A stretch of 58,465 nt of DNA from Candidatus Bathyarchaeota archaeon RBG_16_48_13 (GTDB lineage Archaea > Thermoproteota > Bathyarchaeia > RBG-16-48-13), in contig MEZH01000007.1 of assembly GCA_001775995.1 (NCBI GenBank), positions 264,806-323,270 of the forward strand, in the 5' to 3' direction. Positions within the stretch are counted from its first letter, which is position 1. Every line of letters starts with the position of its first letter. Below, piece by piece: positions 800 through 4,112 of the stretch. Both the position numbers and the translations under genes were made by a program. Below the pieces are notes generated by a model that was given only the letters and a program-made list of their open reading frames with translations, ran no database searches and was not told where the DNA came from.

Positions 800-2035
800 A
801 TGTACCTTACGAAGGAAGAGGAGCGGATGTACAATGGGGAGTGCGGCGAGCTCATTGAGTGGGCTATGAAAACCATCGTTGCATGGGGAGAGGTCTTCAA
901 TGCCAAGAGAATGGTTAAGATCGATTGCGCTCACTGTAGCTGCTCGGCCTACATGGTGGATGGAAAAAAATCCATCTTGGACTTTATGGGAGACCTAGCT
1001 AAATCCAAGCCAAGGGTAGTTGTTCCCGCGACATGTCAAGTTGCCTCAACCGATATGGTGGACTGGAAAAATCTCAACATTCCAGAGTACGTTGCTGAAG
1101 GACAACTCAAGTTGAGAGATCTTATAGAAGGTATGGGACCTGCTCCTACATGGACCTGCGCCCCTTACTTGGTCGGAAATATCCCAGTTGGAGGAAGCAA
1201 CATTGCGTGGTGTGAGTCCTCGGCCATTGTCTATGCCAACTCCGTTTTTGGGGCACGAACAAATAGGGAATGCGGTCAAAGCGTCTGGTTTGCCTCGTTT
1301 ATAGGGAGAACCGCCGAATATGGTCTCCGCTTGGATGAGAATAGGCGAGCTAGGGTCTTGATAGACGTTACAGCAAGTCTGAAGAATGAGACCGATTTTG
1401 GTGCATTGGGATATTTCGGAGGAAAGGTAGCGGGTCTACGAATCCCCGCATTCAAAGGAATTAAGAAGATCCCAACCGTCGAAGATTTCATGCAAGTCAG
1501 CGCTGCATTGGCAACCACAGGGGGAGTACCGATGTTTCATGTACTTGGGGTAACCCCTGAAGCTCGAAGAGATAATGAAGCATTCGGTGGGGAAAAGCCT
1601 GAAGAGACAATAGAGTTTGGCGAAGAAGAGCTGAAAAAGACTTACGAAGGAATACATTCGGGAAGCGGAGATAAGGTCGATTTTGTGTTCTTAGGATGCC
1701 CTCACGCTACATATCACCAGGTCAAGAGCGCCGCAGAAATGCTTGATGGTAAGAAGATAAAGAAGGACACGACATTCTGGATAGCCACGGCAAGACAGAC
1801 AAGGAATCTTATAGAGAAGGCTGGATACGGGAATATCATAAGGGCAGCTGGCGGAAAGATCATATGCGACACTTGTCCAGCTGCAGCCTTGGAGATAGGG
1901 TTCAAGCCTCAAGTAATGGTCACAAATTCGTTCAAGCAAGCTCACTATGTTCCAGGGCAATTCAAAGCCGGTTCCATAGCTTCAGATACGAAATCCTGCA
2001 TCAGTGCAGCCCTTGAAGGCAGATGGAGGGCTTAA
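800..2035 (+). CDS. Phosphomevalonate dehydratase large subunit (aconitase X, DUF521)
   Basis: This 411-residue protein is the catalytic subunit of the aconitase-X family. In archaea the two-subunit enzyme dehydrates 5-phosphomevalonate to trans-anhydromevalonate phosphate, a step of the archaeal mevalonate route to isoprenoid lipids. The Cys-rich segments expected for Fe-S binding are visible: CAHCSCSAY near residue 48 and CDTCPAAA near residue 356. The next gene begins one base after its stop and encodes the swivel-domain partner, so the pair is translationally coupled as is usual for split AcnX. Isoprenoid function is inferred from the archaeal context and the split arrangement. Bacterial AcnX relatives act on hydroxyproline-derived substrates. 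Confidence 0.93.
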   Translation: MYLTKEEERMYNGECGELIEWAMKTIVAWGEVFNAKRMVKIDCAHCSCSAYMVDGKKSILDFMGDLAKSKPRVVVPATCQVASTDMVDWKNLNIPEYVAEGQLKLRDLIEGMGPAPTWTCAPYLVGNIPVGGSNIAWCESSAIVYANSVFGARTNRECGQSVWFASFIGRTAEYGLRLDENRRARVLIDVTASLKNETDFGALGYFGGKVAGLRIPAFKGIKKIPTVEDFMQVSAALATTGGVPMFHVLGVTPEARRDNEAFGGEKPEETIEFGEEELKKTYEGIHSGSGDKVDFVFLGCPHATYHQVKSAAEMLDGKKIKKDTTFWIATARQTRNLIEKAGYGNIIRAAGGKIICDTCPAAALEIGFKPQVMVTNSFKQAHYVPGQFKAGSIASDTKSCISAALEGRWRA

Positions 2036-2036
2036 T

Positions 2037-2447
2037 ATGAAGATCATGTTGAGAGGGAGAGGCGTGGTAAAGGGATTCGGAGAAGGGGAGGCCCTCGTCA
2101 CTAGACAAGGGATCTCTTTCACTGGCGGAGTCGACATCGAGAGTGGTATCATAGTAGAGAAAAATCATGAATTAGAAGGAAAGAGCATAGTCAACAAAGT
2201 TTTAGTATTTCCCGCCGGCAAAGGGTCTGTGGGAGCGTCATCTGAGCTCTACCACGCATCGAAGGCTGGAACGGCACCAAGAGCTATAATCAACAAACAA
2301 CTGGATCCCCCACTAGTTTTCGGAGCGATCTTGGTCAAATTACCTCTGATGTGCGACCTGAACAAGGACCCCATAGAGACCATAAGAACAGGGGATTACG
2401 TCAAAGTCGATGCGACGAGAGGGATAGTCGAAATCACAAGAAAGTAG
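2037..2447 (+). CDS. Phosphomevalonate dehydratase small subunit (aconitase X swivel domain, DUF126)
   Basis: This 136-residue protein has the mobile swivel domain that closes over the active site of the aconitase-X large subunit encoded just upstream. It opens with the family's beta-strand RGRGVVKGFGEGEALVT, and the conserved substrate-side loop AGKGSVGASSELYH lies at about residues 61-74. The start is the ATG one base after the upstream stop. An in-frame upstream ATG at 2004 would overlap the large subunit by 32 bases and adds residues not found in the family. The two subunits should assemble as a heterodimer in the cytoplasm. The later decarboxylase of this pathway (UbiD type) is not in this window. 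Confidence 0.92.
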   Translation: MKIMLRGRGVVKGFGEGEALVTRQGISFTGGVDIESGIIVEKNHELEGKSIVNKVLVFPAGKGSVGASSELYHASKAGTAPRAIINKQLDPPLVFGAILVKLPLMCDLNKDPIETIRTGDYVKVDATRGIVEITRK

Positions 2448-2544: not shown

Positions 2545-3174
2545 ATGTCGAAAGATTCCCTTTGTGAATTGATTCGAAGTAGGAGAAGCGTTCGTCGATA
2601 TCAAGAAAGAGCTGTGCCGATCAAGAAGATCAGGCACATACTTAGCATGGTCGCTTGGGCACCTTCGGCTCATAACTCGCAGCCTTGGAGATTCATAATA
2701 ATAACGGACAAGAGGAGGAAAACTAAGCTAGCCGCAAAAATGGCTGAAGGCTTTGAGAGGGACTTGAAAAGGGATGGGGTTCCTGAGAACGTACGCACGA
2801 AGGTCGCCAATGCATCGATCAGGAGGTTCACCGAGGCACCTGTTGTTATAGTTCCATGTTTGAACATGAGAGAAATGAGGATTTATCTTGATGAAAGGCA
2901 AGAGAGTGAGTACACCATGGGGATTCAAAGCGTTTCAACCGCGATCAACACTCTTCTATTATTTGCACACGCTGAAGGCTTTGGAACGTGTTGGTACTGC
3001 TCCCCGTTGTTTTGCAAGGAAGATGTTAGGAAATCTTTGAGCATCCCGAAAGATATAGATCCGCAAGCTCTGGTGACCATGGGCTATGCGGCGGAAAGAC
3101 CAGCGAAGCCACAACGAAAAATCGTGGATGAAATAATCTATCTTGACAAGTGGGGAAGCAATCCAAAGGAGTGA
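2545..3174 (+). CDS. Nitroreductase-fold flavoprotein resembling the FbiB C-terminal (dehydro-F420 reductase) domain
   Basis: This 209-residue protein is an FMN-binding nitroreductase-fold enzyme. The N-terminal RRSVRRY (about residues 13-19), WAPSAHNSQPWRF, and C-terminal GFGTCWYC (about 145) mark the FMN site. What narrows it is the middle block DLKRDGVPENVRTKVA and the APVVIVPCL strand. These match the pattern I know from the C-terminal domain of mycobacterial FbiB, which reduces dehydro-F420 using FMNH2. Its stop lies 8 bases before cofD, so the two are almost certainly co-transcribed, supporting a role in coenzyme F420 synthesis. The ATG at 2545 is preferred; an in-frame upstream ATG at 2467 adds a non-homologous tail. 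A generic nitroreductase remains the alternative. Confidence 0.8.
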   Translation: MSKDSLCELIRSRRSVRRYQERAVPIKKIRHILSMVAWAPSAHNSQPWRFIIITDKRRKTKLAAKMAEGFERDLKRDGVPENVRTKVANASIRRFTEAPVVIVPCLNMREMRIYLDERQESEYTMGIQSVSTAINTLLLFAHAEGFGTCWYCSPLFCKEDVRKSLSIPKDIDPQALVTMGYAAERPAKPQRKIVDEIIYLDKWGSNPKE

Positions 3175-3182
3175 AGAGGAGA

Positions 3183-4112
3183 ATGTACACGGTATTGGCT
3201 GGGGGTGTCGGAGCAGCAAGATTCTTACAGGGATTTCTGAATACAGTCGATCCTTCAGAGGTAACGATCATTGTAAACACAGGCGATGACGAAGAGTTTT
3301 ACGGTCTCCATGTATCGCCTGACCTCGATATAGTGATGTACACCTTAGCAGGGATCGTGGATCAGAAAAAGGGGTGGGGCATCTATAGAGACACATTTCT
3401 CTGTATGGAAGTTCTTCACAGGTACGGCGAAGAGACATGGTTCAAGTTGGGGGATATGGACTTAGCGACTCATGTACTTAGAACCGAGTTGTTGGACGAG
3501 AATGTTACATTATCAGAAGTCACACGGAAATTGTGCCATGAGTTGGGGATTCGATCAAGAATTATTCCGATGAGCAACAATAAAGTTTCAACGATGGTTC
3601 GAATAGGAAGCGGGTTCATAAAGTTTCAAGAATACTTCGTGAAGAGAGCGACCAGTGATGACGTCAATAAGGTGATTTTCAAGGGCATCGCGAACGCGAA
3701 ACCAGCTCCAGACGTCGTAGATTCAATCATGGACTCCAAGGGAATCATCGTTGCACCAAGCAACCCCATTGTCAGCATAGGCACAATTTTGGGTGTCAGG
3801 GGTGTCAGAAAAGCTCTTAGGGATACTAAAGCTCGCAAGGTGGCCATAAGTCCAATCGTTGGTGGCAACGCAATCAAGGGACCCGCGGATAGACTTATGA
3901 GGGGACTCGGAATGGAGCCAAGTGCCTACGGAGTCGCCGCTCTCTATCGAGATTTCTTGGACTGGATGGTGATAGACGAGATTGACGTCGCATTGAAAGG
4001 AAGAATTGAGGGACTTGGCATGAATGTTGGAATTACCGACACCATCATGAGGAACCAGAGAAAGAAAGAGAATTTGGCACGCTTTATCTTGGACATTTTT
4101 GGCCGAGGTTGA
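3183..4112 (+). CDS. cofD: 2-phospho-L-lactate transferase (CofD/FbiA family)
   Basis: This 309-residue enzyme joins the phospholactyl (or phosphoenolpyruvyl) moiety of an activated guanosine diphosphate donor to Fo, giving F420-0 or dehydro-F420-0. The N-terminal nucleotide-binding block LAGGVGAARFLQG and the Fo-binding block NTGDDEEFYGLHVSPDLD (about residues 33-50) are diagnostic. IVGGNAIKGPADRLM lies in the second half. The start chosen (ATG after GAGGAGA) follows the nitroreductase gene by 8 bases. Which three-carbon donor it uses cannot be read from sequence alone, but the neighbouring FbiB-like reductase makes the dehydro route worth considering. Length is normal for the family. Confidence 0.96.
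   Translation: MYTVLAGGVGAARFLQGFLNTVDPSEVTIIVNTGDDEEFYGLHVSPDLDIVMYTLAGIVDQKKGWGIYRDTFLCMEVLHRYGEETWFKLGDMDLATHVLRTELLDENVTLSEVTRKLCHELGIRSRIIPMSNNKVSTMVRIGSGFIKFQEYFVKRATSDDVNKVIFKGIANAKPAPDVVDSIMDSKGIIVAPSNPIVSIGTILGVRGVRKALRDTKARKVAISPIVGGNAIKGPADRLMRGLGMEPSAYGVAALYRDFLDWMVIDEIDVALKGRIEGLGMNVGITDTIMRNQRKKENLARFILDIFGRG

What the first reader, a model, noticed from the sequence alone, without database searches (positions are those of the whole stretch)
2545..4112. Archaeal FbiB-like dehydro-F420 reductase coupled to cofD
The nitroreductase is a single-domain protein whose central block matches the FbiB C-terminal domain of actinobacteria, and it lies 8 bases before cofD. In mycobacteria that domain reduces dehydro-F420 formed when phosphoenolpyruvate, not phospholactate, is the donor. 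Archaea are usually described as using 2-phospholactate. This arrangement suggests some archaea make F420 through the dehydro intermediate.
Basis: partly seen in the sequence, partly recalled or inferred. Interest (0 to 1): 0.75.

Follow-up and report, generated by a model that had tools for sequence, protein, structure and literature searches.

The report
Archaeal FbiE (dehydro-F420 reductase) beside cofD
A Bathyarchaeia-class archaeon carries a stand-alone FMN reductase, coupled to the F420 gene cofD, that belongs to the family that reduces dehydro-F420 in mycobacteria and Thermomicrobia; a PEP-based route to the cofactor in these archaea is therefore likely, as already proposed in general, although this genome and most of its relatives lack the genes for the cofactor's chromophore.

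Summary
A 209-aa nitroreductase (2545-3174) ends 8 bases before cofD (3183-4112). [quoted passage not shown] Orthologues are a sharply separated group (185-238 bits, against 96 or less for other nitroreductases). In 61 related genomes they occur only where CofD occurs (13/13, against 0/33 without CofD). Among 80 named loci the gene abuts cofD in 41, mostly overlapping or within a few bases, in Bathyarchaeota, several Asgard groups and Chloroflexi. In Lokiarchaeota it is fused to CofE and followed by cofD. A tree puts archaeal proteins, Loki fusions, Thermomicrobium FbiE and FbiB-C in one clade. FbiE+ CofCs all have glycine at FbiD-G163; methanogen and haloarchaeal CofCs tested have Tyr or His. 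So this is an archaeal FbiE, most likely reducing dehydro-F420-0 made from PEP (about 0.75). Dehydro-F420 was not measured.

Two limits. Stand-alone FbiE in archaea, and the PEP inference, were published in 2021. CofG and CofH are absent from this 75%-complete genome and from 12 of 13 FbiE+ genomes in the sample, though present in Helarchaeota and Lokiarchaeota. Most must import Fo or use another acceptor: the most interesting loose end.

The parts
2545..3174 (+). fbiE-like gene: stand-alone FMN nitroreductase-fold protein (209 aa), predicted dehydro-F420(-0) reductase
   Evidence: TIGR03553 125 bits, PF00881 114 bits; PDB best match FbiB-C 4xom by sequence and by fold (AF2 pLDDT 91.9, TM 0.84-0.90); clade with FbiB-C and Thermomicrobium FbiE
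2662..2685 (+). active-site motif PSAHNSQP, residues 40-47; H43 corresponds to FbiB H290, A42 to FbiB P289
   Evidence: H43 is present in every family member sampled, while the 17 paralogues mostly have Ala, Gly, Ser or Trp
2884..2919 (+). substrate-side segment, residues 114-125: Y114, R118, E122 and M125 (M125 = FbiB M372, pocket for the methylene group in Bashiri 2019)
   Evidence: largely conserved in FbiB-C, Thermomicrobium FbiE, Loki fusions and archaeal FbiE; mostly absent from paralogous nitroreductases; M372 role from PMC6450877
3175..3182 (+). 8-base spacer between fbiE stop and cofD start
   Evidence: read directly; orthologous junctions mostly overlap or lie within a few bases
3183..4112 (+). 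cofD: 2-phospho-L-lactate / enolpyruvyl transferase (309 aa)
   Evidence: TIGR01819 330 bits, PF01933 170 bits; PDB 3c3d CofD 225 bits, 6uvx FbiA 178 bits

Best explanation
The gene is an archaeal fbiE, probably translated together with cofD. Proposed working: CofC, encoded elsewhere in the genome, activates phosphoenolpyruvate with GTP to EPPG; CofD transfers the enolpyruvyl-phosphate to Fo, giving dehydro-F420-0; the FbiE protein, an FMN enzyme of the nitroreductase fold, delivers a hydride from FMNH2 to the methylene of the enolpyruvyl group, giving F420-0; the separate CofE adds the glutamates. Shown here: homology, fold, clade, gene coupling, co-occurrence, pocket residues, and CofC and CofE genes in the genome. 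Inferred: the reaction, the PEP substrate, FMN as cofactor. In this organism Fo probably comes from outside, since no Fo synthase was found.
For: FbiB-C is the best match in NCBIfam, PDB sequence and PDB fold searches. One clade with FbiB-C, Thermomicrobium FbiE and Loki CofE-FbiE fusions against 16 other nitroreductases, SH-aLRT 99 once long-branch rows were left out. 41 of 80 named loci have fbiE directly before cofD, 7 Loki fusions precede cofD, 5 are divergent from it. 13/13 FbiE genomes have CofD against 0/33 CofD-less genomes with FbiE. Even where fbiE is not near cofD, 24/25 genomes encode CofD. Pocket residues H290, M313, D320, Y360, R365, E369 and M372 are largely kept. CofC has Gly at FbiD-G163 in 30/30 readable FbiE+ archaeal and bacterial sequences. 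CofG, CofH, CofC, CofD and FbiE lie on one contig in G051.
Against: No biochemistry. CofG and CofH not found in this genome (75% complete) or, counting it, in 12 of 13 FbiE+ genomes of the sample. 15 of 28 CofD+ relatives lack FbiE, five of them with a G163 CofC. Two archaeal CofC/D pairs tested elsewhere preferred 2-phospholactate. FbiB P289 is Ala here. Two betaproteobacterial plasmid nitroreductases fall in the same clade with no F420 genes beside them, so clade membership alone does not fix the substrate. The own CofC is masked at the diagnostic position.
Confidence: 0.75

Rival explanations
1. Metabolite repair: the organism makes its cofactor mainly from 2-phospholactate, and FbiE only mends dehydro-F420 formed when the promiscuous CofC/CofD takes PEP by mistake.
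For: CofC enzymes are promiscuous in vitro, and two archaeal CofC/D pairs preferred 2-phospholactate (PMC8764529). 15 CofD+ relatives manage without a detected FbiE.
Against: Strict dependence of FbiE on CofD, close gene coupling and fusion to CofE suggest an obligatory step. FbiE-lacking genomes of family f8 and G013 have a different CofC pocket residue (E or D, not G) and deep-branching CofD, which fits a different donor rather than a missing repair enzyme.
Confidence: 0.1
2. The cluster builds a tail on an acceptor other than Fo, giving an F420-like cofactor that is not F420; FbiE reduces the enolpyruvyl group of that product.
For: CofG and CofH are absent from 12 of 13 FbiE+ genomes in the sample, several at least 94% complete, and CofH was found in none of the Bathy-, Odin-, Baldr-, Hermod- or Brockarchaeota FbiE genomes searched by name.
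Against: CofD scores well above the F420 equivalog cut-off. Relatives with the same fbiE-cofD pair (G051, Helarchaeota) do have Fo synthase genes. Import of Fo is simpler.
Confidence: 0.08
3. An unrelated FMN nitroreductase (detoxification, BluB-like or flavin reductase) that merely shares a transcript with cofD.
For: The nitroreductase superfamily is broad; TIGR03553 is below its curated cut-off; two members of the clade sit in non-F420 plasmid contexts.
Against: Co-occurrence with CofD, repeated adjacency across phyla, the Loki CofE fusion, pocket residues and the tree. Thermomicrobium FbiE is likewise below that cut-off.
Confidence: 0.05

Closest known systems
FbiE of Thermomicrobium roseum (stand-alone dehydro-F420 reductase; Braga et al. 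2020 as cited in PMC8498797)
   Same: Stand-alone nitroreductase-fold protein in a cofD-cofC neighbourhood (NC_011961); 45% identity over 168 aa; same clade.
   Different: Order there is cofD-cofC-transporter-fbiE, not fbiE-cofD; P289 is kept there and is Ala here. That WP_012643075.1 is the assayed enzyme was not verified, as the paper is not held.
[quoted passage not shown]
   Same: Fold (TM 0.84-0.90), pocket residues H290 and M372, same clade.
   Different: 32% identity; a domain of a CofE fusion in actinobacteria, a separate gene here.
CofE-nitroreductase fusion of Lokiarchaeota (noted in PMC6450877)
   Same: C-terminal domain in the same clade, gene directly before cofD.
   Different: Fused to CofE; here CofE is a separate gene at G000:C7:245929-246579.
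Euryarchaeal (methanogen) F420 pathway from 2-phospholactate
   Same: CofC, CofD, CofE homologues.
   Different: M. mazei CofC has Tyr at FbiD-G163; the CofD tree places M. mazei and the FbiE-less family f8 apart.

Membership tests
FbiE / FbiB C-terminal domain (dehydro-F420 reductase) | Nitroreductase (FMN) fold with FbiB-C as closest structure | tested here: met
   AF2 mean pLDDT 91.9; the eight best Foldseek PDB matches are all FbiB-C chains
FbiE / FbiB C-terminal domain (dehydro-F420 reductase) | Falls in one clade with FbiB-C and Thermomicrobium FbiE to the exclusion of other nitroreductases | tested here: met
   SH-aLRT 99 against 16 other rows (82 when long-branch rows are kept); place of actinobacterial FbiB-C inside the clade unresolved
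FbiE / FbiB C-terminal domain (dehydro-F420 reductase) | Score above curated cut-off of TIGR03553 | tested here: not met
   125 bits against 249.55; Thermomicrobium FbiE 163 and Loki fusion 130 also fail, actinobacterial FbiB 316 passes, so the cut-off marks the actinobacterial form rather than the reductase family
FbiE / FbiB C-terminal domain (dehydro-F420 reductase) | Substrate pocket residues P289 and M372 of FbiB | tested here: inconclusive
   M372 kept; P289 is Ala, as in nearly all archaeal and Chloroflexi members
FbiE / FbiB C-terminal domain (dehydro-F420 reductase) | Genetic linkage to F420 tail genes | tested here: met
   Abuts cofD here and in 41 of 80 named loci; only in CofD+ genomes in the sample
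FbiE / FbiB C-terminal domain (dehydro-F420 reductase) | Reduces dehydro-F420 with FMNH2 | not testable with these tools
   needs an enzyme assay
CofD / FbiA | Above curated cut-off of TIGR01819 | tested here: met
   330 bits against 257.45
PEP-dependent F420 pathway | CofC of the PEP-using type | tested here: inconclusive
   Gly at FbiD-G163 in all readable FbiE+ CofCs, but the own CofC is masked there, and published mutants at the equivalent residue (S162) of a 3-PG CofC turned over mainly 2-phospholactate, and PEP less, in assays with M. jannaschii CofD
Complete F420 pathway | Fo synthase CofG and CofH | tested here: not met
   Only weak radical-SAM matches (22.5 bits or less) in the 75%-complete assembly

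The most novel reading that the evidence does not exclude
Most Bathyarchaeia, and several Asgard groups, run a tail-only F420 pathway: CofC, CofD, FbiE and CofE without any Fo synthase. They scavenge Fo from neighbours (or use another acceptor) and finish the cofactor from PEP through a dehydro intermediate, making F420 in these archaea a community-dependent vitamin.
Probability: 0.4. Interest if true: 0.72.

Novelty: new member of a known kind. Interest (0 to 1): 0.5.

Why it matters
Bashiri et al. (PMC6450877) could not explain how archaea would finish F420 from PEP, having searched only near cofE. The reductase sits next to cofD instead, in Bathyarchaeota and several Asgard groups, and its presence goes with a CofC pocket residue. 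That splits archaeal F420 synthesis into two testable types (FbiE with G163 CofC, against FbiE-less with E, D, Y or H). The lack of Fo synthase in most FbiE+ archaea raises a new question: where does their chromophore come from?

Tried and rejected
Braga 2020 and Bashiri 2016 are not held, so F420-binding residues from the 4XOQ paper could not be checked. FrhB (PF04432) as a marker of F420 use did not discriminate: it is in 48/61 genomes, with or without CofD, and not in the own assembly. CofE (PF01996) did not discriminate either: 59/61 genomes, including CofD-less ones. The reading as an ordinary nitroreductase was rejected on tree and co-occurrence. The position of actinobacterial FbiB-C relative to the archaeal proteins (inside or sister) could not be resolved (AU p 0.73), so the direction of any gene transfer is left open. 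G163 as a proven PEP/2-PL switch was rejected: mutants at the equivalent residue in PMC8764529 do not show that; it is used only as a marker.

Full report
What is there. The window carries a 209-aa gene (2545-3174, +) whose stop lies 8 bases before the ATG of cofD (3183-4112, +). The first protein is a single-domain nitroreductase (PF00881, 114 bits); among NCBIfam models its best matches are the FbiB full-length and C-terminal models (128 and 125 bits), then BluB at 84. The second is CofD by TIGR01819, above the curated cut-off.

Where it lives. The window lies in an 848,615-base, 75%-complete assembly. Relatives of the same class include contigs whose lengths match Bathyarchaeota records (G026 contig 1 = PCNA01000014.1, G039 contig 157 = CALMWK010000157.1), and a same-order relative, G008, matches JAUPKU010000021.1. 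I therefore take it as class Bathyarchaeia, by inference.

It is one orthologous group, not any nitroreductase. In 61 genomes the query finds 12 relatives at 185-238 bits (44-53% identity); the next match drops to 96 bits. Nine of the twelve are directly followed by cofD on the same strand, mostly as ATGA-type overlaps; one is divergent from cofD; two have no cofD within 1.5 kb. CofD was then sought in the same genomes: all 13 FbiE+ genomes (own included) have it, and none of the 33 CofD-less genomes has FbiE (Fisher p 6e-6, uncorrected for kinship).

Spread. A scan of named genomes returned 80 loci: Bathyarchaeota, Helarchaeota, Odin-, Baldr-, Hermod-, Brock-, Nezha- and Lokiarchaeota, and Chloroflexi. 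Scored with profiles built here, 41 have fbiE directly before cofD, often followed by cofC; 5 are divergent; 2 lie about 1.3 kb off; 7 Lokiarchaeota have a CofE-FbiE fusion directly before cofD; Chloroflexi loci L092 and L106 read cofE-fbiE-cofD-cofC. In 25 loci no cofD is within reach, but 24 of those 25 genomes hold CofD elsewhere.

Tree and fold. With actinobacterial FbiB-C from plasmid records, the Thermomicrobium roseum nitroreductase beside cofD-cofC, Loki fusions, Chloroflexi, and other nitroreductases of the same archaea, all FbiE and FbiB-C rows form one clade (support 82; 99 after dropping four long-branch rows). The exact place of FbiB-C inside it is unresolved. The AF2 model (pLDDT 91.9) finds FbiB-C chains as its eight best PDB matches, TM 0.84-0.90. 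FbiB residues H290, M313, D320, Y360, R365, E369 and M372 are largely kept across the clade and mostly absent from the paralogues; P289 is Ala in nearly all archaeal and Chloroflexi members. M372 and P289 form the methylene pocket in PMC6450877.

The donor. Nothing here shows PEP use directly. One indirect sign: at the CofC position of M. tuberculosis FbiD G163, whose backbone contacts PEP, every readable FbiE+ sequence has Gly (30 of 30 archaeal and bacterial), as do Thermomicrobium and Rhodococcus; FbiE-less family f8 and G013 have Glu or Asp, M. mazei Tyr, three haloarchaeal plasmid copies His. But FbiE-less G030 and family f21 also have Gly, proteobacterial CofCs with no FbiE nearby have Gly, and mutants at this site in PMC8764529 do not separate PEP from 2-phospholactate. 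It is a marker, not a proven switch. The CofD tree likewise sets family f8 and M. mazei apart from FbiE-associated CofDs, with modest support. The own CofC (G000:C12) is masked at this position.

The chromophore gap. CofG and CofH give only weak radical-SAM matches in the own genome. In the 61-genome sample strong CofG or CofH occurs in nine genomes: six of family f8 (four of them CofD+; none with FbiE), a seventh f8-type genome, G054, and FbiE+ G051. Twelve of 13 FbiE+ genomes lack it, many at least 94% complete. Among 50 named fbiE genomes, CofH is strong in 4 of 4 Helarchaeota, in the 3 Loki fusion genomes searched and in 3 of 4 bacteria, and absent from the Bathy-, Odin-, Baldr-, Hermod- and Brockarchaeota searched. 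The complete FbiE route thus exists in Helarchaeota, Lokiarchaeota and G051; most others, this organism included as far as assembled, must import Fo or use another acceptor. I found no paper in the held library on this.

A diverged subgroup. 22 Bathyarchaeial FbiE proteins not adjacent to cofD form one supported clade (98); M372 is Leu in 21 of 22, and the preceding residue is Asp in all. Many sit beside a zinc alcohol dehydrogenase and a DeoC/LacD aldolase. They may have a shifted function. The window protein is not in that clade.

Prior knowledge. PMC8498797 names FbiE, cites its demonstration in T. roseum, and says independent FbiE homologues in archaea suggest a PEP route there. PMC6450877 looked only near cofE and found no good archaeal candidate except the Loki fusion. 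The finding is a new member of a known kind; the cofD coupling, the co-occurrence table, the CofC marker and the missing Fo synthase are what this work adds.

Noticed in passing
own genome G000 and relatives; G051:C70 as the exception: CofG and CofH (Fo synthase) not found in the own assembly or in most FbiE+ relatives, though CofD, FbiE and CofE homologues are there; G051 has CofH, CofG, CofC, CofD and FbiE on one contig.
   Followed up: partly
L032, L035, L041, L047, L049, L054, L063-L065, L068, L071, L078, L081, L082, L086, L088, L090, L091, L093, L094, L096, L097: A clade of FbiE proteins away from cofD with altered pocket (M372 to Leu, invariant Asp before it), often beside a zinc alcohol dehydrogenase and a DeoC/LacD aldolase: possible new function.
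   Followed up: partly
L222:3929-4600, L223:3887-4579: Betaproteobacterial plasmid nitroreductases (Paraburkholderia, Variovorax) fall in the FbiE/FbiB-C clade but have no F420 genes beside them.
   Followed up: partly
G021, G031, G056 (family f13), G039, G053: FbiE+ CofD+ genomes, 95-98% complete, with no convincing CofC match (none, or under 25 bits): another nucleotidyltransferase may take its place.
   Followed up: no
CofE (PF01996) across 61 genomes: CofE-type ligases occur in 59 of 61 genomes, including many without CofD; two score classes. Some may act on another substrate, such as a folate-type one (TIGR04132 is a weaker match of the CofE domains scanned).
   Followed up: no
window 800-2447: Large and small aconitase-X subunits (AcnX, swivel) just upstream; from general knowledge likely the archaeal phosphomevalonate dehydratase.
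   Followed up: no
G036, G040, G044, G060 (family f21), G030: CofD+ genomes with the Gly-type CofC but no FbiE and no Fo synthase detected: a missing or replaced reductase.
   Followed up: no
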